IMG/VR virus record: IMGVR_UViG_3300044966_000953
Span: 1 to 22,542 of that record
DNA: 22,542 nucleotides
Strand: one strand, 5' to 3'
Source: a virus
Notes under the pieces: model-generated
Told to the model about the DNA's origin: nothing
The model's database searches: none
Seen by the model: the letters and a program-made list of their open reading frames with translations, nothing else
Part shown: positions 1 to 20,696 of the stretch, piece after piece
How the letters are laid out: each line of letters opens with the position of its first letter
Numbering within the stretch: the first letter of the stretch is position 1
Position numbers and translations under genes: made by a program

Positions 1-274
1 CCGAAAATGCCTGTCCCCATGTTCTTTGTATTCCTTCTGGTGCCGCTGGTGGCTCTGCTGGTGTTGCTGCTGGTGTTGCTGCTGGTGTTGCTGCTGGTGT
101 TGTTGCTTCAGCAATAACTCTTTCTGCAAAAGTAACTCTTGCATTTGGCTTAAATTTTCTTTTATTTATAGACATAAAGTTATCAATATGAAGATATGAA
201 TCAACTTCTGTTATTGCATACATTTTTGCTGTTTCGCATATCATTCGTTGAATAACTGGATGTAAATTTTTCAT
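1..274 (-). CDS. Partial hypothetical protein with TPAA-repeat linker
   Basis: The 5' part of a minus-strand gene that runs off the left edge; at least 91 codons are open. The ATG at 272-274 overlaps the TGA of the upstream protease gene as ATGA, which suggests translational coupling. The first ~55 residues (starting MKNLHPVIQRMICETAKMYA) look like a small globular helical domain. They are followed by a linker of four Thr-Pro-Ala-Ala units encoded by a 12-bp tandem DNA repeat, then an unfinished segment (EGIQRTWGQAF). No recognised family. A short folded head followed by a Pro/Ala tether is also seen in the gene at 7266-7796, so it may belong to the same class of modular phage proteins; that is inference. 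The missing 3' part could change this reading. Confidence 0.75.
   Translation of the reverse strand, partial: MKNLHPVIQRMICETAKMYAITEVDSYLHIDNFMSINKRKFKPNARVTFAERVIAEATTPAATPAATPAATPAEPPAAPEGIQRTWGQAFS
61..108. repeat. 12-bp tandem repeat (3 perfect + 1 degenerate copy)
   Basis: The unit GTGTTGCTGCTG is repeated exactly at 61-72, 73-84 and 85-96, with a diverged fourth copy at 97-108. Read on the minus strand it encodes Thr/Pro/Ala repeats in the partial gene at the left edge. The length is a multiple of three, so copy-number change would alter linker length without shifting frame. Confidence 0.85.
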
Positions 275-996
275 TTGCTTAAACTTTCCAATAAAGAATA
301 GTAAAAAATCTTAGGAATACTTTTGTCTTCTTTATTTATTAAAAAATATTTATTTTTGTCTAATATTTCTTTAATTTTATCGATTGATTTAAAAACAGAA
401 ATATCTGTAACGATTTGTCCGTTGTAACTTTTTATGCCAACGCAAACACCAATTGCTTTATTTTTCTTAAACATTGGACCACCGGAATCACCGGGAACAC
501 AGGATATGCTTGTTCTTATTGAAATCATATCTGTGGATAGTCCGCTAATAAAACCTTTAGATAATCTTGGACTTTCTCCCAATCCACAACCAATTGAAAA
601 AACATCATCATCAATATAATTTTCTGAATTAAAATCAATATCAATAGTGTTTAATTGATTTTCTGAAAAAAATACAATTATTGATAAATCAAAATTTGTA
701 TTGGCGGATATAACAATAGCTTTGTACTCTTTGTACCCAATAACAGAAGAATCTTTATATTCTGGCACTGCTATTTTTATTTTTTCTTCGCATACATGAG
801 CACAAGATATTACTGTGTTGATATAATAATTTTCTATTGCTTTTTGGCTTCTGACTATAAATCCTGTTCCTGTGTTTTTTTCTGACAAACTTTTGATCAT
901 TACAGTTGGTTTTAAGCAGTTTTCATATAATGGTAATTTTGAATCTGGTATTTTGTAAAATATCAAGGAGCAAACTAATAAAAATATTTTGTGCAT
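271..996 (-). CDS. Trypsin-like serine protease, signal-like N-terminus
   Basis: Chymotrypsin/trypsin-fold (S1-type) endopeptidase of about 241 residues. The triad is visible: His in TVISCAHV (about residue 67), Asp in NFDLSII (about 103) and the nucleophile Ser in GDSGGP (about 171). TGTGFIV near residue 43 is the usual first strand after the N-terminus. I place the start at the ATG at 996, not the in-frame GTG at 1029, because MHKIFLLVCSLIFYKIPDS then becomes a signal-peptide-like N-terminus and purine-rich AGAAAG lies upstream. LLVC does not fit a lipobox well. The 3' end overlaps the next gene as ATGA. The spacing and sequence are closer to short HtrA-like or virus-type S1 proteases than to digestive trypsins, and no PDZ domain is present. 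Substrate unknown; maturation of virion proteins or action at the host envelope are both possible. Protease assignment is firm, role is not. Confidence 0.85.
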   Translation of the reverse strand: MHKIFLLVCSLIFYKIPDSKLPLYENCLKPTVMIKSLSEKNTGTGFIVRSQKAIENYYINTVISCAHVCEEKIKIAVPEYKDSSVIGYKEYKAIVISANTNFDLSIIVFFSENQLNTIDIDFNSENYIDDDVFSIGCGLGESPRLSKGFISGLSTDMISIRTSISCVPGDSGGPMFKKNKAIGVCVGIKSYNGQIVTDISVFKSIDKIKEILDKNKYFLINKEDKSIPKIFYYSLLESLSK

Positions 997-1022
997 TTTG
1001 TTGCTTCTTTCTATTTTAATAT

Positions 1023-1238
1023 ATGCCACAAAACTGCTTTTTCACAACAAGAAAAGATGACAAAGACATTTTAAGAATGTGTCCTCTTTGTATAAAGTGC
1101 GGCTCTAAATGCGAAACAGCATTCTTTTGGGAAGGATCTAGCCTTGGTTATGGAAAACACAAGATTATTTGCGGAGACTGTCAGCATGTAATTCATGATC
1201 CTTTTGATTCGGAGGCGACCAAAAAGTCGAGCAATTAA
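1023..1238 (+). CDS. Small Cys-rich (zinc-ribbon-like) protein
   Basis: A 71-residue protein with Cys20, Cys23, Cys26, Cys30, Cys50 and Cys53 arranged as CPLC-IKCGSKC and a later CGDC, a pattern suited to one zinc-ribbon or rubredoxin-like knuckle pair. The start at 1023 is the first ATG after an in-frame TAA at 1017 and has no clear Shine-Dalgarno; ATG at 1077 (Met19) is an alternative that would keep all six motif cysteines. It is divergent from the protease gene with only 26 bases between the starts. Its stop overlaps the next start as TAATG, so the two are probably co-translated. Function unknown; zinc binding is inferred only from the spacing. Confidence 0.6.
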   Translation: MPQNCFFTTRKDDKDILRMCPLCIKCGSKCETAFFWEGSSLGYGKHKIICGDCQHVIHDPFDSEATKKSSN

Positions 1239-2736: not shown

Positions 2737-3099
2737 ATGGCACTTGCAAAGTTTTCAGAATGGGTTGAATTTTATGAAAATAAAAATGAAAATGAAAATG
2801 CTGGCGGAGCAGTTAACATGCAGATGCCTCCTTCAAGTAACACTTTCAAAACAGGTGTAGAAGAACCTGAAGTTTCTGAAGCTGAATTACACAAAAATTT
2901 TGGAGTATTTAAAAATCAGTTTGAAAATTTAATGAAAAGAGTTAATAGAACCAAACGAATTCCAGTAAAAACTTCAAGAGACATAATCGTTAGTTTATTA
3001 AATTCAATTACAGAAAGATCTAATTTAAAGGGTACTGAAAAGGCGAAAATAAAACAACTTTTGACAATTGTTGACAACAATCCAGATCAACAACAATGA
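2737..3099 (+). CDS. Hypothetical protein with N-terminal FxEW motif, 120 aa
   Basis: Begins after a strong Shine-Dalgarno (ACAGGAGACAATC before the ATG). The N-terminus MALAKFSEWVEFYENKN carries an aromatic F-x-E-W motif followed by an Asn/Glu-rich and Pro-containing flexible linker (to about residue 50). A helical C-terminal domain follows, with many Lys/Arg (NLMKRVNRTKRIPVKTSRDI) and a Gln-rich tail. The short tag, linker, helical domain layout recurs in phage virion-associated proteins. Function unknown. Confidence 0.65.
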   Translation: MALAKFSEWVEFYENKNENENAGGAVNMQMPPSSNTFKTGVEEPEVSEAELHKNFGVFKNQFENLMKRVNRTKRIPVKTSRDIIVSLLNSITERSNLKGTEKAKIKQLLTIVDNNPDQQQ

Positions 3100-3112: not shown

Positions 3113-3709
3113 ATGAACCACAACATAAAAAAGATACAGAACCTTAGAACAGGTCCGTCTCCTGATGTGAATAAATTAAACGATAAGATAACACCAGATC
3201 ATATAAAAAAGCCTTTTTTGACCCCAAAAGTAGTAAAAAATACTTCTAATAGGGACAATTTAAGAGTTGATGAAAAAAGAAAAGTTATTGAAGATAACTT
3301 TGCGATGAATTTGATGAATGGTGTTACTGGGTTTCTAAAACCATCTACAAATTGGTATTTGAATTTTGGCGGTACTGGCGATTTAATTTTATTGCTTGCA
3401 GGATGTTATAACGACCCTAACGCACAAATTGTATTTTGTGCCAATACTTGTAGCTTAGAATTATGCAAAGAAATTCTAGATTTTTTCAAAAAAGATTATT
3501 ATCTTTCTCGTAATGTCATGGGTTCAAGAGCCGCTAATACAATTCATGATTACATGAGAAGTAGAACAAATTTAAAGCCAAGTGGGCACTTAGCAAAAGG
3601 ACTTTACTTTGGTGACTGGCCTGTTAATCAAGATTATTATGAAAAAAATATAAAAATTAAAACAGATTGGATTCAAGAACTAGGGAAAGAATCCATTTTT
3701 CAAAGATGA
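3113..3709 (+). CDS. GT9-like glycosyltransferase, N-terminal half (frameshifted)
   Basis: The first 198 residues of a probable GT-B-fold glycosyltransferase related to the GT9 (ADP-heptosyltransferase-like) family. The segment NWYLNFGGTGDLILLLAG resembles the N-terminal strand-loop-helix in which GT9 enzymes show a G-D-x-(I/L) motif, followed by IVFCANTCS and a second helix. A Lys/Asn-rich region of about 60 residues precedes the domain. The reading frame ends at TGA 3707-3709, but the adjacent +1 frame continues at once with the expected second domain, so the two parts were almost certainly one protein of about 350 residues, the normal size of the family. It could be a real pseudogene, a recoded gene or an assembly indel. 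Confidence 0.6.
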   Translation: MNHNIKKIQNLRTGPSPDVNKLNDKITPDHIKKPFLTPKVVKNTSNRDNLRVDEKRKVIEDNFAMNLMNGVTGFLKPSTNWYLNFGGTGDLILLLAGCYNDPNAQIVFCANTCSLELCKEILDFFKKDYYLSRNVMGSRAANTIHDYMRSRTNLKPSGHLAKGLYFGDWPVNQDYYEKNIKIKTDWIQELGKESIFQR

Positions 3710-4172
3710 CAGAGTTGTTATAGTTCAGCCTTCTGGATCAACTAAATCCTTAGATAGACAAAGATACTTATCACAAAATGAATATAATTCTTTGGTAAAA
3801 AGACTTGTAAATGAAAATTATCATGTGATTACAACTGGATCTTTGGCAGATAAGGAATTTTATAATTGGCGACCTTGGACTGTTAAAAATTATTTCATGA
3901 CATCTGGACAATTATTTGGATTTAATAAAGTTTCATCTATAAACATATCAACATTTTTACAAACAATAAATTGTGCTGAAAAAGTAATTTCTATGGATAC
4001 ATGGTTAAAAACATATTCATCAATATGCGGAATTGAAACAATAGTAATTCAAAGTAGATGCAGAGGCGGATATTTAAGGGTCGGTTCAGATGTAGGAGAC
4101 AGTATATTTCTTAACACCAAATGGTGGCCAAATATGCGTATTGTTAAATTTGAAGACCTAACTAGTTTTTAA
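3684..4172 (+). CDS. GT9-like glycosyltransferase, C-terminal half (+1 frame)
   Basis: An open frame without a good start of its own: the first possible initiator is a TTG at 3792. The frame is open from 3684, giving NPFFKDDRVVIVQPSGSTKS, the classical GT9 second-domain strand ending in a P-(S/G)-S nucleotide-sugar loop, then an amphipathic helix and VITTGS. Near the C-terminus, VISMDTWLKTYSSICGIETIVIQ matches the GT9 pattern S-x-D-T-x-x-x-H/K-x-A/S-x-x-x-G. It follows the N-terminal half by one base of frame. The sugar and acceptor are unknown. The stop (4170-4172) overlaps the stop of the convergent gene in the shared TTAA at 4169-4172. Confidence 0.6.
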   Translation, partial: GKNPFFKDDRVVIVQPSGSTKSLDRQRYLSQNEYNSLVKRLVNENYHVITTGSLADKEFYNWRPWTVKNYFMTSGQLFGFNKVSSINISTFLQTINCAEKVISMDTWLKTYSSICGIETIVIQSRCRGGYLRVGSDVGDSIFLNTKWWPNMRIVKFEDLTSF

Positions 4173-6088: not shown

Positions 6089-6958
6089 TTAGTTATTTGT
6101 CAATACAAAATCTACAAACTGCATAGACATTTGCATAATTGGCGCTTCAAAATTATTATTTTTAGAAATTATTTCTGCGATTTCTCTTCTCTTGAAGAAT
6201 TCTTCTATATCTGAGTTTACAACCTTGACACTATGAACTGTTAATCCAGATTGATCTATATATTCTCTATAAGTTTTGACAGGATAAATTATTTTATTTG
6301 TTGGATAGTTTTTTATATCTGGATATAAGTATCTTAATTCATTTTCTGTTAAAAACAAATGAGCAAAAGCTTTATTTATTTTATTATAAGTGTGTCCTCC
6401 ATGTCTTGATATGAATGGATGTGCTCTTATGTATATTTTTCCATTATCTGCTAGTATTTCTTTTAAAAATTTAAGACATTCTGGTATTGTTATATCTTCT
6501 AGATGATCAAGAACGTCATAAAGTATGATTATGTCATATGGTCCATTTTCTTTTACAACATCTTTATCAAATGTTATGAATCCTTGATCTTTTTTTATTT
6601 TTACTTTTGGACTACAGATATAATCATATCCAACTGTGATTATTGGATTTCTTTCAGTAATTGCTTGTACTAAATGTCCTTCTCCGCAACCAAAATCAAG
6701 TATTTTTTTGTTTTCAAAACTTTCATCAATAAAAATATCTCTAATACCTTCTGCTCTTTCAATTTTGTCTAATTCATTATTTTCATTACATAATAAATCA
6801 GGATCAACAGCACTAGGCCAATCTGGAGAGTTTAACAAATGTTGTAATGCTTCCAAGTGATTATTATTAGATGCAGGTTGTTGAAGTACATCTTTTTTTA
6901 ATTCTTTTAAGATTTTTTCTAGGGAATCAATTTTGTTCAATAAATTATTTGTGGTCAT
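6089..6958 (-). CDS. Class I SAM-dependent methyltransferase, 289 aa
   Basis: A Rossmann-fold methyltransferase. Residues 5-27 form a short coiled coil (LLNKIDSLEKILKELKKDVL). Motif I is ILDFGCGEGHL (86-96), the acidic residue after strand 2 is Asp112 in VGYDY, and the motif-IV strand is GPYDIIILYDVLDHLED (139-155). A signature near residues 180-205, HPFISRHGGHTYNKINKAFAHL, matches, from memory, methyltransferases of T4-like and other large marine phages, in which H-P-W/F-S-R-H-G-x-H is followed by a N-K-A-x-x-H-L helix. It heads a minus-strand group with three probable virion proteins, so it may modify a virion protein or a glycan. It has no N-P-P-Y motif, so a DNA N6-adenine or N4-cytosine target is less likely. 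Substrate unknown. Confidence 0.8.
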   Translation of the reverse strand: MTTNNLLNKIDSLEKILKELKKDVLQQPASNNNHLEALQHLLNSPDWPSAVDPDLLCNENNELDKIERAEGIRDIFIDESFENKKILDFGCGEGHLVQAITERNPIITVGYDYICSPKVKIKKDQGFITFDKDVVKENGPYDIIILYDVLDHLEDITIPECLKFLKEILADNGKIYIRAHPFISRHGGHTYNKINKAFAHLFLTENELRYLYPDIKNYPTNKIIYPVKTYREYIDQSGLTVHSVKVVNSDIEEFFKRREIAEIISKNNNFEAPIMQMSMQFVDFVLTNN

Positions 6959-7265: not shown

Positions 7266-7796
<531 letters not shown>

Positions 7797-7827: not shown

Positions 7828-7833
7828 AAAACT

Positions 7834-7968
7834 ATGTTGGACACACTATTTTGGTTTGCTTGTGGTCTTATTGTAGGTTGGAATCTTTTACCTCAACCTT
7901 GGTATATTAAAATGGCTTACGATTCCATGATTTCAATGGTTAAAAGTTGGTTAATTGGAAGCAAATAA
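7834..7968 (+). CDS. Small single-pass membrane protein, 44 aa
   Basis: A 44-residue protein MLDTLFWFACGLIVGWNL... It has one hydrophobic helix (about residues 4-19) ending in G-W-N-L-L-P-Q-P, then an amphipathic C-terminal helix (YIKMAYDSMISMVKSWLIG). The pattern F-x-x-G-x-x-x-G-W-N-x-x-P-Q-P recalls small conserved membrane proteins of large myoviruses, but that is from memory. It has the best Shine-Dalgarno of the window and is followed by a strong terminator, so it ends the transcript of the 6980-7968 group. Role unknown; candidates are lysis, superinfection or membrane attachment. Confidence 0.8.
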   Translation: MLDTLFWFACGLIVGWNLLPQPWYIKMAYDSMISMVKSWLIGSK

Positions 7969-8917: not shown

Positions 8918-10189
8918 TTAACAGTTCCTTAATATTTGTTCAGGAATGCTTGCAATACATCTTGTTAAGCCTACCAAATCACTTGGATTACCGTTATAAG
9001 GTAATTCTTTAATGTTCAGTCCGTTAACAACTCCTGAAGCTTCTTTGAGTGTGTCAATAGTAGCATTAAGAAAAAGCATTCCATCTTTTCTGCTAACAAA
9101 TTCTGCTCGTTCTTTTAAAGGCATTCCATTTTCATCAACATCTCCAGTATCTTTTTGGAATAATATTTTCATATCCATAAGCGTTACAAGTTCGCCATCT
9201 GTATTAAACAGGGCTTCTGATGCATCATTCTGGAAGGTATTAACCATAAATGATCCATTTTCATAACCACTTCTGAGCAAGTTTGCTAAATCAAAACCAA
9301 CAAAATAAACAGTGCCGTTATCTGCAAGAATATTTACAATAAACAGACGTTTTTCAAAATATGAAGCAACTGATTCTACAAGAATACGATGTCTGAGAAC
9401 TCTTTTTTCTTCTGGCGCACCACTATCAAGCTTCTCCAATTCTGGATCAGCTAAATATTTCTGCGGATCATCTTGCTGAAGCGTCCAACGACCAAGATCA
9501 ATGGCACCAAACTTGCTGTTAAATCTTGTAGAGATTTTCATTGAATAATTTTTTTCATTATAAATGATATCTTCTTGCTGACCACCTGAACCAACTTGAA
9601 TTGCGCCAATCAAAGAAGCGATATATTTTCTATGAAGATCTGCTTTGTTGCTGTAGTAACCTGAAATTTTAATAAACGTATTAACTAATTCAGGCATTGT
9701 AGACAAAACTGTAACAAAGTGGTTAACAATTGAAGTAGATGGATTCGCTGTGTCAAGATCATCTCTAATCTTTTTACGCATATCACCAGATGCTTTATTA
9801 ATATTTGAATTTTGTCTTAGAAAACAAACTTGAAGATTGTCTTCCACAAATTTTCTTTGATAAGTTGATAATTCAGCATCTCTAATTTGATTGATCATTA
9901 CAACCAAACTGTTGACATCATTTTTAACACTTTCTCTGAAAAATTTAGATCTCCAATTTGGAAAATCAGAACTTTCTTTCTTTTCTGGCATGTCCGGGCC
10001 TGATGGATCATCGAATTCCGGCACGGGACTATTCATCGGGTTTTGAGCTTGCGGGAGTCCTAGCTGAGTGCTTTTCTGGTCTGCTTCTGGCGATAAGCTA
10101 CTAGGATCTGATCCCATAAATCCATCGGGAGGAGGCGCTGGATTCTCCTGTTCTCTTAACAACCAATCTTCGAGATTAATCCAACTCAT
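8918..10189 (-). CDS. Probable structural/assembly protein, 423 aa
   Basis: The ATG at 10189 lies inside the upstream gene's end (14-base overlap) behind AGAAGAAA. The N-terminus MSWINLEDWLLREQENPAPPPDG carries an L-x-D-W tag followed by a Pro/Ser/Asp-rich disordered segment to about residue 78. After it come a helical domain (NWRSKFFRESVKNDVNSLVVMINQIRD...) and a mixed alpha/beta C-terminal domain (LFIVNILADNGTVYFVGFDLANLL). The protein has no membrane segment or catalytic motif that I can see. Size, tag and context suit a virion assembly or packaging-related protein of a large phage. No family named. Confidence 0.65.
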   Translation of the reverse strand: MSWINLEDWLLREQENPAPPPDGFMGSDPSSLSPEADQKSTQLGLPQAQNPMNSPVPEFDDPSGPDMPEKKESSDFPNWRSKFFRESVKNDVNSLVVMINQIRDAELSTYQRKFVEDNLQVCFLRQNSNINKASGDMRKKIRDDLDTANPSTSIVNHFVTVLSTMPELVNTFIKISGYYSNKADLHRKYIASLIGAIQVGSGGQQEDIIYNEKNYSMKISTRFNSKFGAIDLGRWTLQQDDPQKYLADPELEKLDSGAPEEKRVLRHRILVESVASYFEKRLFIVNILADNGTVYFVGFDLANLLRSGYENGSFMVNTFQNDASEALFNTDGELVTLMDMKILFQKDTGDVDENGMPLKERAEFVSRKDGMLFLNATIDTLKEASGVVNGLNIKELPYNGNPSDLVGLTRCIASIPEQILRNC

Positions 10190-10650: not shown

Positions 10651-11034
10651 ATGACACCTCCAAGAAAAAACTTGAGTGAAGATCTTGATGCTCAAATCAA
10701 GACTACACATGATCTTGCAACAAGGATTGATGAAAGAGTCAAACTTTTAGTAGAGAATCATGATAAGATAGAATCTAAACTAGAAAGATTCTTGGATAAA
10801 CAAATTGATATTGTATCAAAAGTTATAATAAATGAACAAAATATAGAATATATAGAAGACTCAATGTCCAAAATGGATGAGAGAATTTCAGATATAGAAC
10901 AAAATCATTTATTATTAGATAATTTTAAAAAAGGAACCGAATCAACATTCAAAAATATAGGAAAACACTTAGTTAATATAGTATTAACTGTTTTGATTGG
11001 TTATATTTTGTATGTTTTGAAATTCGAAAGGTGA
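10651..11034 (+). CDS. Coiled-coil protein with C-terminal membrane anchor (XhlA-like), 127 aa
   Basis: Residues ~8-90 form a long heptad-patterned helix (DLDAQIKTTHDLATRIDERV; SKMDERISDIEQNHLLLDNF). They are followed by one C-terminal hydrophobic helix (HLVNIVLTVLIGYILYVL, about 106-123) and a short basic tail KFER. This coil-then-anchor layout resembles XhlA-type haemolysin/lysis accessory proteins and some phage tail-anchored proteins. The Shine-Dalgarno is weak. It is the first gene of the plus-strand tail block and its TGA is six bases before the next ATG. A lysis role is plausible but unproven; a tail-related membrane tether is the alternative. Confidence 0.65.
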   Translation: MTPPRKNLSEDLDAQIKTTHDLATRIDERVKLLVENHDKIESKLERFLDKQIDIVSKVIINEQNIEYIEDSMSKMDERISDIEQNHLLLDNFKKGTESTFKNIGKHLVNIVLTVLIGYILYVLKFER

Positions 11035-11039
11035 AAATT

Positions 11040-12326
11040 ATGGCAGATGATTTTTTGTCAAAACTTAGACTAAAAGACAGCAAAGAGTCTACTTTTTTTA
11101 AACCATTCAAAGTTTCATCATCAATGAACGCTTTGTTAAAACCAATAGTTGATGCATTTGAAAACTCAGACAAAGTAACAATTGGTTACTCTACACTTGA
11201 GAAAAACAAAGGACTTACAAAACCAACACTCAAAAGAAAAACTATTTATCTTACTGGCGGCGCTCTAAGAGATCACCTAAAAGGCAAAACATTCAGAAAT
11301 TATGATCTAGTAACTGACGCAACGCCAGATGAAATCATCATGATTCTCAAAAATGCTGAAACAAATTTTATATTTCTATCAGAACCAGAACAAACTAATA
11401 AAAATGATATAATTTTCTATCCATCAAGATATGATGATGAAAACAACATGATGGAACTTGCTGTTGAAAGAAATGGCCAAAAAGCTTACATTTCAACAAT
11501 GAATTCAAACACAAAAGATAGAAGTAAAAATGTAAGAAAAGCAAAATTTTGCACAAGTATTGATCTAGATTCCAAAACTAGAGATCTTACTATTAATTCA
11601 CTTTATTTGAAACTTAAAAATTCAGATGGAGAAAATGCAGAACTGCTTGATCCAGTTGGAGGAGTGCATGATCTAAAATCTGGACAAATTGTTACTATTT
11701 CCGGCGTTGAAGATACTCTTAATAGATATCCATATCTTGGATTTAGATTGGCTAGTCTTGCAACTAGATTTTCTGATGATAAAAGAATTCCCGAAAAAAT
11801 TATTCATGTTATGGATGATGCAGATATTGATATGGATTTAAATCCACATGTTCTAAAAGATATGTTCGTTAAAACAATTGAAGATTCAACAACTTATCTT
11901 GAAGATTATTTGAAAAATTTAGTTGATTCAAAAATGATTTACAAATTGTTTGATGATTGTACTATCAGTGAAATAAAACCAGATCTTCCAAATAATAAAA
12001 TTACTTTAATTGCATATTTGTTGTGCAAAAATAGTCCTGACAAGATTCAGTCTGTTCTTTCAAAATGTGGATTTTTATCAACTGATATAGATGAAATATT
12101 AATATTCGTAAAGATGGCAAATGAATCTTTGCGTGGCAGTGTTGATTTGGCAAATGTAGAATCATATTTCAAAAAGCCAAGCAGATTGCCAAAATCACGA
12201 ATACAAGAATTTATTCATCTTTTCAAAAAAGGTCAAGAGCATAGAAAAACTAAAGAAGATAGTAATGAAATACAAGATGATTTTGATGACGAAAATGTGG
12301 AAAGATATATAAAGAGAATTGAATAA
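11040..12326 (+). CDS. Poly(A)-polymerase/CCA-transferase-like protein with altered active site, 428 aa
   Basis: Start is the ATG at 11040, six bases behind AAAGGTG; an in-frame GTG at 11031 adds three residues. The head domain of class II tRNA nucleotidyltransferases/poly(A) polymerases is evident: LTGGALRD (71-78), then KTFRNYDLVTDATPDEI (83-99), aligning with the family's GKKPKDFDVTTNATPEQV-type motif. A later TRDLTINSLYL (180-190) matches R-R-D-F-T-I-N-A-L, and DPVGGVHDLKSGQI (204-216) matches the D-x-x-G-G-x-x-D-L-K motif. The first metal-binding Asp of D-x-D is Asn87 (N-Y-D), the first Arg of RRD is Thr180, and the E-D-x-x-R templating motif reads RYPYLGFR (229-236). Catalysis may be lost or changed. 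It lies in the tail operon next to the GLNLHYL gene (TAATG overlap). Confidence 0.85.
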   Translation: MADDFLSKLRLKDSKESTFFKPFKVSSSMNALLKPIVDAFENSDKVTIGYSTLEKNKGLTKPTLKRKTIYLTGGALRDHLKGKTFRNYDLVTDATPDEIIMILKNAETNFIFLSEPEQTNKNDIIFYPSRYDDENNMMELAVERNGQKAYISTMNSNTKDRSKNVRKAKFCTSIDLDSKTRDLTINSLYLKLKNSDGENAELLDPVGGVHDLKSGQIVTISGVEDTLNRYPYLGFRLASLATRFSDDKRIPEKIIHVMDDADIDMDLNPHVLKDMFVKTIEDSTTYLEDYLKNLVDSKMIYKLFDDCTISEIKPDLPNNKITLIAYLLCKNSPDKIQSVLSKCGFLSTDIDEILIFVKMANESLRGSVDLANVESYFKKPSRLPKSRIQEFIHLFKKGQEHRKTKEDSNEIQDDFDDENVERYIKRIE

Positions 12327-12827: not shown

Positions 12828-15800
12828 ATGGCTGAGATGAATGCTGCTGATTTTGCAAAAGAATTGTTAAGATCATGCCAAAATGCAAAACCATATGACA
12901 AAAAAGCAGATAATAAAAACAATGATATGGCACAACTTAATATTTTGCTTTCAAAATTCACCAAGAATTTTGATGAAAATTTTAAAAAAATGGAAAATTA
13001 TCTCAATCAAATAGCAGCATTAGCAAAAAATAATCAAAAAAGTAGTGAAGAATATGACAAATTAACAAAACTGCAAACAGATGCTTACAAAGGAAACAAA
13101 TTAAAGAAAAACACAGAACAAGAGCAAAATTATTTTAAAGAAAACAAAAAAATAGGAGCCGCATCCTTAAGATATTATAAAAAAGCTTCAGAAAAAGGCA
13201 GTATTTATGTACATGATGTTGGTGCTCACAAATTTCTAAACCAAATAAATATAGCATTAAAAGGAGCAGATGCATTTAGTGGTTTCGATACAAATAAAAT
13301 GTTCACAGCAGACTTTTATAAAAGTATTGAAACAGGAATAGGAAGCGCAGCCACAACTGCAAACGAAGCAATCAAAAAAGAACCACCAGCAGATGCAAAA
13401 AAACCACCATCAAAAGGAGGTGGAGAAGATAAAGAAGTTCATTTATCGGAGCATGATCCTTTAGAAACAAGCGCATCAATGATTAGAATCGCCAAAGTTT
13501 TAAGTTTGATAGATAAAGTAGAATCAGCCCTTTTTGGTTTGGGAGAAAAACAAAAAGGCATACAACAACTTACTTTTGGCGGACTTGTAAAAAATGAAGT
13601 GGCATTTATGTCTGCTTCTAGAGAAGCAGCTTTTGAATTAGGAAATGCAACTAAAGAAACACAAGGATTGCTTACAGCAAATGAAAAAATTGGAAGAACT
13701 GTATCAGAAACAGGAGCAGACAGAGATGACTTCCAACAAAATTATTTGAAAAATCTTAAAGCCGGTGTGAAAAATATAAAAACTGCCCAACAAATTACGG
13801 TTTCTCAATTAAACACAGAGAGACAATTGGGCATGGCTGCTGGTGATTTAAATGAAACATTTCGTGATTTTGCTGTAGCCGGAAGAATGAATGAGGGCCA
13901 AATTGCTGATATGGGCCGAGGAATGAGAGAAGTAGCCAGAAATACTGGTCTTACTGGTGAATCTCTGAAAGCCGCTGTTTCTTCTAGCAAATCATTTACA
14001 GAAAATTTGAGAAAAGCAGCAACTTTAACCGCAACAGCTTCAAAGAATGTTCTTGAAGCAACCGCTAATTTTCAAAAATTAGGTGTTGCTGAAGCTGGTG
14101 GCGAGCTTCTCAAAAAATTGACAAGTAGCACAGATTTATTGATGGATTCCACATCAAAAACTGCAACATTTTTATACATGGCAGCAGGTTCAGCAGGAAA
14201 AATTGGAGATCTGCAAAAAGGAACATTATTAAAATCCAAGCAAGGCATAAAAGAATTAGCTAAAGGGATGGAAAATGTTCTTAAAAAATTCGGAGTTAGC
14301 AGTCTTGAGGCAGTCGATCAATTATCTGATGAAGCAAAAGTAAGCATAAACTTTCAATTAAAAACAACACTAGGAGTTGAATTAGGAGAAGCTAGATCAT
14401 TGATCGAAGCTGTTAAAGAAACTGGGAAAACTTTTGGTGATAGATTAGACGATGTTCAAAAGAAACTTAATGGTAATATCACAGCTGAAGAAAAAATCGC
14501 AATACTAGAAGAAAAAAGAAGACTAGAAACCTCAAAATCTTTAGAAGTTTTGACAGCTTTGGACGAAGCCGCCAAAGGCGCAAAAGATATGAATCAAGCT
14601 TTGTCTACATTTTCAAAACGAAAAGGAGAATTTGAAAATGATATCAAGGCAATGGGAGGAAGTTTCACAGACGGAATAGATGCCGCAAGAACAGCAATTA
14701 ACACAAGCCTTAAATCAATTAATGAAGGATTGCTAAAAGCCGGAAAACAACAAATTAAAATTGATACATCAGAAATAGAAAATGCTTTGAAAGATCCAAC
14801 TGCTTTAAGAGAATTGTCTGCCAAACTTTCAAAAGGCGAACAACAATTAGCAACAGCGCAAAAGTCACAATTAGATCCAATAAAACAAACAGAACAAACA
14901 TTAAGAGAATATAATGACTTCTTTAGAAGCTATTCATCAAGTATTATTACTGGAGTTTTAGGAACAATTGGAGCAATTGGTATCGGAACAATTGCTGTAG
15001 TCGGTATTTTAACAATGATTTCTTTGCAAGTTATGGGAATCATGAAAGCACTTGACGGGTTTCTTTTCATGAGTAAGAAACCAACAACAGAATCAAAACC
15101 CGGTTGGGTAGAGTATCTTGCAGCCAGAATAAAAGGCGCTATTCGAAGTGTTATGCCAGCTGCTCCAGCAATATCCGGCGGAGGTACAACAAGTCCAGCC
15201 CCAGTAGCAACCACAGCTGCCGCCGCTGCCAATGCTGCTCCAGGAGCCGCTGCTTCTACAAGTTCTTTGAAAAGTATTGGTAAAACGATGCTTACTAGTG
15301 CTGCACAAATCACAGCTGTTCTTGGTCCGCTTCTTCTTCTAATTGCAGCAACAACACTTCTTGTTTCTTATATGATCAAAAAGTTTGATATAAAACCAGC
15401 TGATGTAATGTTTGCATCAATTAGTTTAGGCATCTTACTTTTAGCAGCTGGCGGTATTATGTATGCCTTAACACAAGGCGAAAAAAATACAGAAAAGCAA
15501 ACTGGTGGAAAGATGATTTCTGCTAAAGCATTAGGAAAAATGGCTTTAATGGGAATCATTCTAACTCTTGCTTCTGGAGTTATAGTAACTTTAATGGGTG
15601 GAATATTTGCGATTGTTCACGGTGTTTTGAAATCAACAAAATTTAAAGCTGGAGAAGGATTCAAAGCATCACAAGGTCTTATGGAATTGTTTATGATTTC
15701 TGGGGCATTATTTGCAGCAATCGCAGGTTTGTTTCATGTTGTTGAAAATGGTTCTAATTTGTTTGGCGCAAAAATTTGGAAAAGTATTGGACTTATGTTT

Positions 15801-18800
15801 TTGCTTGGTCTTGGTTTGTATTTATTTGGCGGTGCTTTGGTGCAATTTATGGCTTCTATGGTTCAATTTGTTCAATCTGTTTTACAATCTATGAAATTAG
15901 ACGCAAAAGAAATTCTTAACGTAGCTGCCAAGCTGGGTGCAATGGCTGTTGTTCTTGGAGTGTTAGTCGGCGTTATTTTGATGATTGCTGGCGCAGTTAA
16001 ACTTCTTGCATTGATGTTTCCTACTATGACAACCACCATTACTTTTGCTCCGCTTGCTGAAGGAGCTTTGTTACAACTAGCAGGAACAATGGCTATCCTT
16101 CTGGTGGGAATGCTTGCGTTTGCTGCTATTGGATATTTATTTGGCGCAGATTTAATCGCCAATATAGCAATTGGCGCTGCTGCTGTTATTATTATGGCAC
16201 TTGCAATGCTGATTATTGCCGCAGCAATAATTGGTTTGGCAGCAGGAGTTTCTGCTTTATCTAGCACGGTCAAAGAATCAGCATTAGCTGCCGCACTGGC
16301 ACCATTGGCTTCTTGGCAATTAATAATTTTTTCATTAGTTGTTGCTGGTCTTGCTATTGCGATGATGGTTTTTGCAACATTAATAAACTCATCAGGAGTT
16401 GATGTTGGCGCAATTATGCAAGCTGTGTTGATTGTAACCGTTGTAATGCTTGCTTGTGCGTTAATAGCTGGTGTGTTGATGCTTGGTTTGTGGGGAATTA
16501 TAGCACTCGGTTCACAAATAGCAGGAATGCAAGTTGCTGCTAGTTATGCATGGCTGGCAGCAGGAGCATTGATTTTGTTAGGGATTGCTTTAGGACTTTT
16601 AATGTTTGGAATGGCATTGCTTGTTGATATTGTATCCCGAAGCAATTTGAAACTTGAGTCAATTGTTTATACAGTTTCTGTAATTGTAGCTTTAGCTCTT
16701 GGAGTAGGGTTAATTGGAGCCGCTATTGGTTTTGGTTTAATGGGTTTAATACAGCTTCAGACAAAAGCAGGACCATTTTTAGCAGCTGCTGGAAATGCTG
16801 CGATTGGCCTTGGATTAATTGCTATAGGCGTTGCAATTGTTACAGTCGGAATTCTTTTGTTATGGGCAGCGTCTCAACTTCTTTCAACAGATATTTTGCT
16901 TAAAGTAGCCACCACGTTTACTCTTCTAACACTTGCTTTGGTTGCTATTGCGATAGGAGCAGTGCTTTCAGCACTCGCTCTAGTTGTAATTGCTGCTGCC
17001 GGATTGTCATTTGTGTATGCTGCGGGACTTGGAACACTGGGTCTTTTCTTTATTAGTGCTGGTTTAACAAGGATTTCCGATTCTATAACTGGAAAAAATC
17101 TAAGGGGTTTTACGCTTGAAGAAACGCTTAATATACTTATAGAAAATTTGTATATTTTTGATTATCTTGTTGAGGTAATGGAAGAAATTGCCTCTTCATT
17201 TATGGCAGTTATACCTTCGTTATCACAAGCAACCATTTCTGCTGCAATGATTTTTGTTTGGGGCGTTTTGTTTGGAGTTGCTTCAGTATTAGCATATGTT
17301 GGACTTCTTTCTATTTCTGTAGGATTAGGTTATCTAAACGCTGGCTTTGGATTCCTAACAGAGGTGGTTAACTCGCTTTATGATAAAATTGAGTTTTTGC
17401 GAGAGAGAATTCCAGAAGTATTTAGAGGTTTGGCAAGCGCATTTATTGTAATGGCATCTTCATTAGCAGTTATAATTATAGCAGCTAGTTTATTGGGTGC
17501 AATAGCATTAGTAGCAGCTTATCTATGGCCAGCTTTAGTAACTGGTTTAGGTCTTATTGCTGTTATGATAATAGGTTTGGGCCTTGCAACTTATGCAATT
17601 ACTGGTGCAATAAAACAGACAGGTCTTGATACTAAAGGAGAAGAGCTTAAGAAATGGAGTGGAATATTTTCTGATATTGCAAAAATTATGATTGATATGT
17701 CTACTGCATTGATGGCATTTTCAAGAGCTATGAGTTCATTAAGTTTTTCTATGTTTTTCATGGGTGGATCATCAATAAGAAAAAATGAAAAAACAGGAGA
17801 GGAAACAACAGTAATTGGAATTATTCTTGCCGATATATTTAACGCATTAGAAATGATGGTTGGCAGATTGCAAAAAGTTGATTTAGATCCTGCTGAATTA
17901 AAGAAAATGTCTGAAAAAACTCAGATTATTGGCGAAATGATGAAAGAAATGTCTAAGGTTGTTGCATCTTTTGCAAAATATGTTTTGCCTTTATTTCAAA
18001 AATCTATAATACAACTTATAACAGGAAGTTCTAGCACTGTAGATCAAATTATTGCTGCTCAAAGTGATATAAAAATTAAATTGCCACAAGTATTTGGGGT
18101 TGTGATCTTTATCGGCGAACAATTTGCACAAGCAGTAGCTGATATGGGTGTAGCACTAAACTCAGTTGATAAAGCTAAGAAATTAGGAGAACTTTCAAAA
18201 GCTATTGGCGAAATAATGACAAACTTTGCTTATAATTTACCATATATTCGACAAGGTGCCGAAAATTTAATCAAGCAATCAAAAGAACAAGATGGATGGA
18301 GGGCGAAGATCCAGCCAGTACAAAATACGTTGGCAGAGGGCATCGAGGCGCTAAAGTTAATTATTGATACTATTTCTCCTAAAATTCAATCTTTAACAAT
18401 TGATGAAAGTCTAGGAAAGAAATTGAACCTAGCTTCTTCCGCACTTGGAGATTTAGGAAAATCTTTCTCTGAACTTGGTAAAGTAGTAAACATGTTTGTG
18501 AGTGGATATGTTTCAAGTGGTGAACTTGCGGAATTTTCTAAAAATAAAGAAAAATACAAGAATGATATGAACAGTGCATTAGCTGCAATTGTTGAGTTGT
18601 TGACCGCTGCTGATACGAAGTTAGCTAAAATGAAAAATTTTGATGCATTGCCGAAGAAACTAGCAACTATGGGTGAAGCCACCAAGAATATGGGAAAAGC
18701 TCTTGAAGCTTTTAAAGATAGCTCAAAAGTATTTACAAGCAAAAAACTAACCAAAGATTTGCAAAAACTTGCAGCAGAGGGAAAAAACCCTGCAAACAAT

Positions 18801-20696
18801 GTCGCAACATTGTTTATAGGTTTTGTGTATGACAGTTTTGTACAACCAATTTTAGATAAAAATACTAATCCTGCAAAAGTAACTAAAGCGTTGGAAGTAG
18901 TATCTGCATCTGCAAAAGCAACAGAAGCAGTAGCTAGTGTTCTGGATAAATTCGGCAAAGATTTTGGAAAACTTTTTGCTAGTAAAAACATTGAAAATAT
19001 TAGTAAAATGATTGGCGAAGTTACTAATGATGCTGGTATTGTTAATTTGGGTAAATTTTTGGGAGACTTCTTTAAATTTATTGATACTAAAATTTTAGCG
19101 GAAATAAACAAAATAAATTTTGATAATATTTTGGATTCTCAGGATATTTTGGTTGAATTGCCAAAAGTTATTGATGGTCTAGTATCTCTATTCAGGAGCT
19201 TTGGAGAATTAACAAGATTTGCTCAAAGTAAAGAACTGAAAAGATCAGGAGATCAAAAAACAGCCATAGATGTTTTGAACGCATGGACTACAGGTACAGA
19301 AGGCCAACAATTAGGACAAGCAATTGCAAACTTTATGACGTTTGCACAAGACCACTTATTAGAACCAATCGTTAAAGTTATGGGAAAAATTAACTTAGAT
19401 ACTATGATGGATGCATCTGATGCGATGAAAACAATATCAGATGTAATGATAAATTTACAAAAAGCAATGGTTAGTTTTGGTGAACTTGGTGCAATGTTGA
19501 CAAAACAAAAAGGATCTGGGGCAAATGCAACAACATATGCAAAACAATTAACACAATTCATTAATGATTTGCAAAGAGACAGCACAGGAGAAGCACTTGG
19601 GTTATTGCCAGATTTCTTTACATTTATAAGTGGACATTTGCTTGCTCCATTGGTGAAGATTGATACAGGGGGAATTGGACCAGAAGAATTAAAAGTTGCT
19701 GCTGAAACTCTTGAAACAATCCCTAAAGTAATTACATCTTTGGCAAATATGATGAAAAGTTTTGATCAAACTTTCAGTGGTGGAACCAAGACTGTTGATG
19801 GAAAAGCGGTAAAACAAGTAGCTGATTTTATTCCAAAAGCAACTGAAATGGCAACAGAATTAGGAAAACACACAGAATCAATAGGCAAATTGTTTAAGAC
19901 GATTTCTGAAGGATTAATAGATCCAATATTCAATTATAATTTACCACCGGGCGATGTTAAAGAAGCAGGAGAATCTTACACTGCACTTTCCGAGCTTTTA
20001 CCAAAATTTGCCAGCTTCATGATGGAAATGGAAGCTAATTTGTCTGGTATTAACTTTAATGGTGTTGGACAAATAATTCAAAATCTTTCGTCAATATCAA
20101 CAATTGGTGGTTCTGGATTAGTAGAACATTTTGCAAATGCTAATGATTATTTAACAACTTTGCTTGGCACTATGGAAGCCACTTTAGAAAAAATGAGCAA
20201 AGTGATGGATATAAACGCCCAAATTAATGGTTTGGGAGGCAGAGTAACAGCAACAATTGAATCTCCAGTTACTGCTGTTCAAAACAATGTTGTAAGAGCA
20301 GCTGGTACTGCAACTACTCCTATTGCTGGAGCGACTGTTGCTGGCACTGGAGCAACCGCAGTTTCTGCAAATAATGCAACACAAGTAGCAGCTGTGCCAA
20401 CCACACCGACTACAACAACAGCATTATCAAACCCAACTACAGCTAGTACAGTTAATAATACAACAACTGTTGCAAATGCTCCAAGCACTGTGCAAGAAGC
20501 AAACAGTAAATCTATTAACGATAACTTAATTTCTGCTGTTGCACTGTTAGGACAAATTTTAAATGCGACTAGTTCTCAAGGCGGTTCTGCTTTATCTGGA
20601 AGTAGCGGTGGAGTAAAAACAGCTTCATCAGGATCTGGAATGGCAGGAGGAGCAGGCAATGCGATAGGCGGCACTAGCGACACCACATCAGCTTAA
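12828..20696 (+). CDS. Tape-measure protein, 2622 aa
   Basis: Start ATG at 12828 behind TAGGTGAT. Layout: residues 1-180 are charged helices; ~183-213 a Lys/Pro/Gly linker; ~214-700 long coiled-coil helices rich in Lys, Glu and Ala; ~703-1605 a very hydrophobic stretch with at least 15 segments long enough for membrane or pore helices, interrupted near 775-812 by a Pro/Ala linker. Residues ~1614-2440 hold about ten degenerate ~77-95-aa helical repeats, and ~2470-2622 is a Thr/Ala/Asn/Gly-rich flexible tail. A very long helical protein with a hydrophobic middle, followed by baseplate genes, is the classical tape-measure signature. It sets tail length and probably takes part in DNA ejection across the inner membrane. 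At about 0.15 nm per residue it predicts a tail near 390 nm (inference). Confidence 0.93.
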   Translation: MAEMNAADFAKELLRSCQNAKPYDKKADNKNNDMAQLNILLSKFTKNFDENFKKMENYLNQIAALAKNNQKSSEEYDKLTKLQTDAYKGNKLKKNTEQEQNYFKENKKIGAASLRYYKKASEKGSIYVHDVGAHKFLNQINIALKGADAFSGFDTNKMFTADFYKSIETGIGSAATTANEAIKKEPPADAKKPPSKGGGEDKEVHLSEHDPLETSASMIRIAKVLSLIDKVESALFGLGEKQKGIQQLTFGGLVKNEVAFMSASREAAFELGNATKETQGLLTANEKIGRTVSETGADRDDFQQNYLKNLKAGVKNIKTAQQITVSQLNTERQLGMAAGDLNETFRDFAVAGRMNEGQIADMGRGMREVARNTGLTGESLKAAVSSSKSFTENLRKAATLTATASKNVLEATANFQKLGVAEAGGELLKKLTSSTDLLMDSTSKTATFLYMAAGSAGKIGDLQKGTLLKSKQGIKELAKGMENVLKKFGVSSLEAVDQLSDEAKVSINFQLKTTLGVELGEARSLIEAVKETGKTFGDRLDDVQKKLNGNITAEEKIAILEEKRRLETSKSLEVLTALDEAAKGAKDMNQALSTFSKRKGEFENDIKAMGGSFTDGIDAARTAINTSLKSINEGLLKAGKQQIKIDTSEIENALKDPTALRELSAKLSKGEQQLATAQKSQLDPIKQTEQTLREYNDFFRSYSSSIITGVLGTIGAIGIGTIAVVGILTMISLQVMGIMKALDGFLFMSKKPTTESKPGWVEYLAARIKGAIRSVMPAAPAISGGGTTSPAPVATTAAAAANAAPGAAASTSSLKSIGKTMLTSAAQITAVLGPLLLLIAATTLLVSYMIKKFDIKPADVMFASISLGILLLAAGGIMYALTQGEKNTEKQTGGKMISAKALGKMALMGIILTLASGVIVTLMGGIFAIVHGVLKSTKFKAGEGFKASQGLMELFMISGALFAAIAGLFHVVENGSNLFGAKIWKSIGLMFLLGLGLYLFGGALVQFMASMVQFVQSVLQSMKLDAKEILNVAAKLGAMAVVLGVLVGVILMIAGAVKLLALMFPTMTTTITFAPLAEGALLQLAGTMAILLVGMLAFAAIGYLFGADLIANIAIGAAAVIIMALAMLIIAAAIIGLAAGVSALSSTVKESALAAALAPLASWQLIIFSLVVAGLAIAMMVFATLINSSGVDVGAIMQAVLIVTVVMLACALIAGVLMLGLWGIIALGSQIAGMQVAASYAWLAAGALILLGIALGLLMFGMALLVDIVSRSNLKLESIVYTVSVIVALALGVGLIGAAIGFGLMGLIQLQTKAGPFLAAAGNAAIGLGLIAIGVAIVTVGILLLWAASQLLSTDILLKVATTFTLLTLALVAIAIGAVLSALALVVIAAAGLSFVYAAGLGTLGLFFISAGLTRISDSITGKNLRGFTLEETLNILIENLYIFDYLVEVMEEIASSFMAVIPSLSQATISAAMIFVWGVLFGVASVLAYVGLLSISVGLGYLNAGFGFLTEVVNSLYDKIEFLRERIPEVFRGLASAFIVMASSLAVIIIAASLLGAIALVAAYLWPALVTGLGLIAVMIIGLGLATYAITGAIKQTGLDTKGEELKKWSGIFSDIAKIMIDMSTALMAFSRAMSSLSFSMFFMGGSSIRKNEKTGEETTVIGIILADIFNALEMMVGRLQKVDLDPAELKKMSEKTQIIGEMMKEMSKVVASFAKYVLPLFQKSIIQLITGSSSTVDQIIAAQSDIKIKLPQVFGVVIFIGEQFAQAVADMGVALNSVDKAKKLGELSKAIGEIMTNFAYNLPYIRQGAENLIKQSKEQDGWRAKIQPVQNTLAEGIEALKLIIDTISPKIQSLTIDESLGKKLNLASSALGDLGKSFSELGKVVNMFVSGYVSSGELAEFSKNKEKYKNDMNSALAAIVELLTAADTKLAKMKNFDALPKKLATMGEATKNMGKALEAFKDSSKVFTSKKLTKDLQKLAAEGKNPANNVATLFIGFVYDSFVQPILDKNTNPAKVTKALEVVSASAKATEAVASVLDKFGKDFGKLFASKNIENISKMIGEVTNDAGIVNLGKFLGDFFKFIDTKILAEINKINFDNILDSQDILVELPKVIDGLVSLFRSFGELTRFAQSKELKRSGDQKTAIDVLNAWTTGTEGQQLGQAIANFMTFAQDHLLEPIVKVMGKINLDTMMDASDAMKTISDVMINLQKAMVSFGELGAMLTKQKGSGANATTYAKQLTQFINDLQRDSTGEALGLLPDFFTFISGHLLAPLVKIDTGGIGPEELKVAAETLETIPKVITSLANMMKSFDQTFSGGTKTVDGKAVKQVADFIPKATEMATELGKHTESIGKLFKTISEGLIDPIFNYNLPPGDVKEAGESYTALSELLPKFASFMMEMEANLSGINFNGVGQIIQNLSSISTIGGSGLVEHFANANDYLTTLLGTMEATLEKMSKVMDINAQINGLGGRVTATIESPVTAVQNNVVRAAGTATTPIAGATVAGTGATAVSANNATQVAAVPTTPTTTTALSNPTTASTVNNTTTVANAPSTVQEANSKSINDNLISAVALLGQILNATSSQGGSALSGSSGGVKTASSGSGMAGGAGNAIGGTSDTTSA
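17669..20040 (+). repeat. About ten degenerate ~80-aa repeats in the tape-measure protein
   Basis: Units begin near residues 1614, 1692, 1777, 1859, 1937, 2014, 2097, 2189, 2284 and 2373. Each contains a hydrophobic helix followed by S-F-(G/A)-x-x-x or a variant, for example VVASFAKY, GLVSLFRSFGELTR, AMVSFGELGAML and MMKSFDQTF. Intervals are 77-95 residues. DNA identity is low, so they are ancient. Confidence 0.6.

What the first reader, a model, noticed from the sequence alone, without database searches (positions are those of the whole stretch)
3684..4172. Glycosyltransferase split by a +1 frameshift at a TGAC stop
The frame ending at TGA 3707-3709 is continued without gap in the +1 frame by the second GT-B domain (VVIVQPSGS then MDTWLK..G). 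The stop is UGA followed by C, the weak-termination context known from the prfB programmed +1 shift, preceded by an AGA codon rather than the CUU used there. The event could be an assembly indel near the T-run at 3696-3700, a pseudogene or true recoding.
Basis: seen in the sequence. Interest (0 to 1): 0.55.

Follow-up and report, generated by a model that had tools for sequence, protein, structure and literature searches.

The report
Broken sugar-transfer gene in a phage
A phage gene resembling sugar-transferring enzymes is interrupted by a single reading-frame slip that its known relatives do not share, most likely a recent mutation or a sequence error, so it looks ordinary rather than a new way of reading genes.

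Summary
ORF A (3113-3709) and the stop-free frame B (3684-4172, +1 to A) are two halves of one protein. 15 of 15 related phage records that cover the junction carry the gene in a single open frame. One orthologue is predicted to have a GT-B fold closest to GT9 heptosyltransferases, with the break in the linker between the two domains.

In 5 of 5 close relatives G-K is followed by N-P or H-P. Frame B encodes GKNP at 3684-3695, frame A GKES. So the frames most likely cross at about 3683-3692, before the T-run and the TGA, which is then just an out-of-frame stop. The score margin is modest: 5.0 bits, or 2.8 with 14 relatives.

I found no support for programmed recoding: no relative shares the split, AGA is the common Arg codon, TGA ends 9 of 23 other genes, and no prfB-like stimulator or RNA structure was seen.

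Both halves keep conserved residues, so the lesion is very recent or artefactual. Best reading: a lone frameshift indel, natural mutation or contig error; without reads I could not separate these. Low interest.

The parts
3113..3709 (+). ORF A: N-terminal part (first Rossmann-like domain) of the GT-B-like protein; in-frame homology most likely ends at about 3683-3692, then out-of-frame codons to TGA 3707-3709
3684..4172 (+). Frame B: C-terminal part (second Rossmann-like domain, VVIVQPSGS ... KVISMDTWLKTY), no ATG, GTG or TTG in frame before TTG 3792
3683..3692 (+). Interval in which the reading frame most likely changes (left bound: frame-B TAG 3681-3683; right bound: frame-B Pro codon 3693-3695, matching a Pro found in the five close relatives)
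3696..3700 (+).
3707..3710 (+). TGA stop followed by C; most likely an incidental out-of-frame stop

Best explanation
The gene encodes one phage protein of about 350 residues, predicted to be a GT-B glycosyltransferase resembling GT9 heptosyltransferases. In this contig it carries one frame-changing indel between the two domains, most likely at about 3683-3692. Read as it stands, translation would give the first domain plus a few wrong residues and stop at the TGA at 3707; the second domain would not be made (inferred from the sequence). The indel is either a recent natural loss-of-function mutation in the sampled phage (my estimate: about one half) or an error in the contig (about two fifths). 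The split and the intact relatives are shown; the source of the indel is not.
For: 15 of 15 records covering the junction are open in one frame through it (ORF lists). The closest, L006, L009, L010 and L011, are 45-53% identical to the window in each half (L012 similar) and share its gene order. The 14 other window genes that match a relative, one of them cut by the window's start, match in their own frame only, apart from two antisense shadows. The window keeps 18 of 18 (N half) and 18 of 19 (C half) residues invariant in 13 relatives, with similar branch lengths on both sides (0.41 and 0.47), so no long decay. No recoding signal found: AGA is 79% of Arg codons, 183 of 200 shuffles of 3684-3790 fold at least as well, and the only SD-like 4-mer found in 3641-3800 is AGGG at 3682, 25 nt before the stop. 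Antonov et al. treat a lone, non-clustered frame transition as a sequencing error or recent indel, among other possibilities (PMC3711429, sections Singletons and Pseudogene clusters).
Against: Lineage-specific recoding is therefore not formally excluded; GGG at 3683-3685 is a rare codon here (24 of 471 Gly codons), and a Gly tRNA could re-pair on the overlapping +1 codon (my inference). Against my slight lean to a natural mutation: Antonov et al. expect lone frame transitions validated by BLASTp to be sequencing errors rather than genuine indels.
Confidence: 0.92

Rival explanations
1. Programmed +1 frameshift at AGA TGA C, working like the prfB site: the ribosome stalls at the weak UGA-C stop and slips one base forward.
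For: A TGA followed by C and a +1 continuation are really present. A crossing at the TGA is only 5.0 bits (five relatives) or 2.8 bits (14 relatives) below the best one.
Against: Homology favours a crossing upstream of the TGA. No SD-like 4-mer lies just before the stop and no stable structure follows. AGA is the commonest Arg codon and would re-pair poorly in +1 (inference). 15 of 15 relatives lack the split.
Confidence: 0.02
2. Lineage-specific recoding (+1 slip) at a rare GGG codon at 3683-3685, giving the full-length enzyme as a minor product.
For: GGG is rare in the window (24 of 471 Gly codons, about 5%). The position fits the favoured crossing. Both halves keep their conserved residues.
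Against: The next codon is AAA, 86% of Lys codons, so neither a stop nor a rare codon follows. No structure in 3684-3790; no relative with the arrangement. Conserved halves are equally expected from a very recent indel.
Confidence: 0.05
3. Two separate functional proteins, one per GT-B domain, from a split gene.
For: The break lies between the two predicted domains (residues 203-209 of L006; helix 198-202, strand 213-217).
Against: Frame B has no ATG, GTG or TTG before 3792, which lies inside the second domain, and no SD-like 4-mer precedes that codon. None of the 15 relatives has two genes here.
Confidence: 0.01

Closest known systems
Single-frame orthologues in uncultured phages (LR756511.1, 595 kb; IMG/VR contigs behind L002, L003, L006, L009-L015, L017, L018, L020, L022)
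   Same: Homologous along the protein: 29-53% identity per half in the 13 compared. In the close group the gene order is the same.
   Different: One open frame there, two in the window.
GT9 heptosyltransferases WaaC (2h1f) and heptosyltransferase II (1psw)
   Same: Predicted two-domain GT-B fold: Z 13.9 over 230 residues (rmsd 3.7) and Z 13.8 over 237 (rmsd 4.4); Foldseek E 5.5e-5 for 1psw.
   Different: About 10% identity, and Foldseek's own TM-scores are only about 0.4. No Pfam family supports membership for the four sequences scanned. Substrate unknown.
prfB programmed +1 frameshift (site details recalled; review PMC5009743 seen in passages)
   Same: A TGA-C stop near a +1 frame change.
   Different: AGA instead of the slippery Leu codon, no nearby SD-like stimulator, frame change probably upstream of the stop, not shared by relatives.

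Membership tests
Programmed +1 ribosomal frameshift (prfB type) | Frame change located at the stop codon | tested here: inconclusive
   Best crossings are at 3682-3688; the TGA scores 5.0 bits lower (five close relatives) or 2.8 bits lower (14 relatives): disfavoured, not excluded
Programmed +1 ribosomal frameshift (prfB type) | Shift arrangement conserved in related genes | tested here: not met
   0 of 15 relatives covering the junction have a frame change
Programmed +1 ribosomal frameshift (prfB type) | SD-like stimulator a few bases upstream of the stop (recalled) | tested here: not met
   Of six 4-mers sought in 3641-3800, only AGGG at 3682 was found
Programmed +1 ribosomal frameshift (prfB type) | Full-length product made in cells | not testable with these tools
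   needs proteomics or ribosome profiling
Frameshifted gene (recent indel) or sequence error | Intact homologues, lone break, both halves still conserved | tested here: met
Frameshifted gene (recent indel) or sequence error | Reads confirm (mutation) or deny (error) the indel | not testable with these tools
   no reads; no near-identical contig found
Glycosyltransferase family 9 (GT9) | GT-B fold with GT9 proteins as closest solved structures | tested here: met
   on the L006 orthologue (not on the window protein), mean pLDDT 78
Glycosyltransferase family 9 (GT9) | Match to a Pfam glycosyltransferase profile | tested here: not met
   none at E<=1 for both window halves and for L002 and L003; L006 was not scanned; so only GT9-like
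Glycosyltransferase family 9 (GT9) | Sugar-transfer activity | not testable with these tools
   needs an assay

The most novel reading that the evidence does not exclude
A lineage-specific +1 recoding event at a rare GGG codon in the hinge between the domains of a phage GT-B enzyme, which would set a ratio of single-domain to full-length protein without a stop codon at the slip site.
Probability: 0.05. Interest if true: 0.5.

Novelty: already known. Interest (0 to 1): 0.1.

Why it matters
As a frameshift lesion or contig error it matters mainly for annotation: the two ORFs should be treated as one broken gene, and the TGA-C context should not be listed as a recoding site. The GT9-like protein, kept at one spot among the same neighbours in the close relatives, matched no Pfam or PHROG family in the four sequences scanned and may deserve naming.

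Tried and rejected
Rejected: prfB-like shift at the TGA; TGA read as a sense codon (frame A after the TGA soon reaches a TAA, sequence, and TGA ends 9 of 23 other complete window genes); two genes with an internal start; long-standing pseudogene; a -2 change (best 436.1 and 423.6 bits against 440.5 and 428.3 for +1).

Led nowhere: megablast of the window against phages, P0001 alone against viral contigs, genome-contig scan, PDB sequence search with two relatives, DNA pattern for a near-identical contig, tRNA search. Papers: one search found 19 papers, 12 listed; of PMC3711429 I read the abstract and the sections Singletons and Pseudogene clusters, of PMC5009743 passages only. One search found 2, seen as a listing. 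I made no search for this locus in print.

Rows dropped: L004, L005, L008, L016 and L019 come from the same contigs as other loci. L021 begins after the junction. The tree leaves out L012, L021 and L022; the 14-relative profile leaves out L021 and L022. In one search I ignored two antisense matches as shadows of real genes; window genes 1023-1238, 2737-3099 and 7266-7796 had no match, and from about 9605 on no relative sequence was held, so those frames were not checked against relatives.

Full report
What is there. The window is an IMG/VR virus record of 22,542 bases and is all that is held of its genome. ORF A runs from ATG 3113 to TGA 3707-3709 (198 residues). Frame B is open from 3684 to 4172 in the +1 frame. 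The stated TGA, following C, preceding AGA and T-run are all correct. An open off-frame run of 162 codons is not chance: among 821 off-frame runs on the sense strand of six window genes the longest is 81 codons.

Relatives. Scans of viral contigs and of phage records gave 15 distinct records that cover the junction: L002, L003, L006, L007 (LR756511.1, 595 kb, uncultured phage), L009-L015, L017, L018, L020 and L022. L011 and L012 are nearly identical by eye; L018 and L022 come from one sample and look alike (not aligned). L021 starts after the junction. All 15 read the gene in one open frame (ORFs of five also, and eight). The protein of L006 matches the window in two frames: residues 28-209 in frame A (46%) and 203-361 in frame B (54%).

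Where the frame changes. The close group reads TDWVELFGKNPIF (L006), TDWVDRFGKNPLF (L009), TDWIERFGKNPLF (L010) and TNWIEKFGKHPHF (L011, L012). Window frame A gives TDWIQELGKESIFQR-stop and frame B gives stop-GKNPFFKDDRVVIVQPSGS. Frame B thus already carries the N/H-P of the close group. Scoring every crossing with profile HMMs gives, for five close relatives, 440.5 bits at 3682, 3685 and 3688, 439.5 at 3691, 436.1 at the T-run and 435.5 at the TGA. For 14 relatives the values are 428.3, 428.2, 427.1 and 425.5. A -2 change scores at best 436.1 and 423.6. The margins are modest but point the same way. L002 and L003 have two residues fewer here and do not decide. The TGA at 3707 is then simply the first stop met out of frame.

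Is it recoding? TGA ends 9 of 23 other complete window genes, and AGA makes up 168 of the Arg codons (79%), so neither is unusual here. The stretch 3684-3790 folds less stably than its shuffles (z +1.2; 183 of 200 fold at least as well). The only SD-like 4-mer among those sought in 3641-3800 is at 3682. No relative has the arrangement. GGG, at the favoured crossing, is rare (24 of 471 Gly codons) and could in principle let a Gly tRNA slip (inference), so a lineage-specific event is kept as the novel case at low probability.

State of the gene. The window keeps 18 of 18 (N half) and 18 of 19 (C half) residues invariant in 13 relatives, and its branch lengths are 0.41 and 0.47. Against L006, L009, L010 and L011 alone it is the most divergent, keeping 59 of 96 and 59 of 84 residues that these four share, where each of the four keeps 59 of 59 to 69; this fits its place outside that group in both trees. 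The 14 other window genes with a match in the relatives, one cut by the window's start and one (8918-10189) covered only up to 9604, match in their own frame; three genes had no match, and from about 9605 on no relative sequence was held. A very recent indel or a contig error fits; reads would decide. Antonov et al. (PMC3711429, complete prokaryotic genomes) say that lone frame transitions can be sequencing errors, recent indels, false positives or orphan recoding, and expect those validated by BLASTp to be sequencing errors rather than genuine indels. That counts somewhat against my slight lean to a natural mutation, which rests only on the intact neighbours and the short runs at the site.

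What the gene is. A model of the L006 orthologue, from an alignment of it with six others, has mean pLDDT 78, with residues 1-10 and 27-63 under 50. Its best solved matches are GT9 heptosyltransferases: 2h1f Z 13.9 over 230 residues, 1psw Z 13.8 over 237, and the GT9 protein 3tov Z 12.9. Foldseek gives E 5.5e-5 for 1psw, the only PDB match below 0.001, with TM-scores near 0.4. Among the 50 viral matches listed two are named glycosyl transferase family 9. UDP-GlcNAc 2-epimerases and their like follow at Z of about 10-12, so the fold is better supported than the family. Pfam and PHROGs give nothing significant for the window halves or for L002 and L003. The break falls at residues 203-209 of L006, between helix 198-202 and strand 213-217, that is, at the domain linker.

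Verdict. A real split gene with an ordinary cause, not a recoding signal; interest 0.1.

Noticed in passing
window 12828-20696: A 2622-residue ORF with long hydrophobic stretches (tape-measure-like, by size and look; inference). One phage record matches it, LR756511.1, over 13% of its length; no Pfam family at E<=0.01.
   Followed up: partly
window 11031-12326: 431-residue protein with a PolyA polymerase head domain (PF01743, E 2.1e-19); 19 phage records match it, several annotated as tRNA nucleotidyltransferase. ARAGORN finds no tRNA gene in the window.
   Followed up: partly
window 271-1029 (-): Trypsin-like peptidase (PF13365, E 1.1e-16) with homologues in L002, L003, L007, L013, L014 and L018.
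   Followed up: no
window 6089-6958 (-): Methyltransferase (PF13489, E 8.5e-16) near the GT-like gene, with homologues in L006, L009, L010, L012 and L021.
   Followed up: no
window 7834-7968: A 44-residue ORF in an otherwise empty gap; the stretch 7828-7947 is 60% identical to an L009 frame, so it is probably a small gene.
   Followed up: no
window 7266-7796: Protein with Pro/Ala repeats and a poly-glutamine run near its end; no match at E<=1e-5 in the relatives compared.
   Followed up: no
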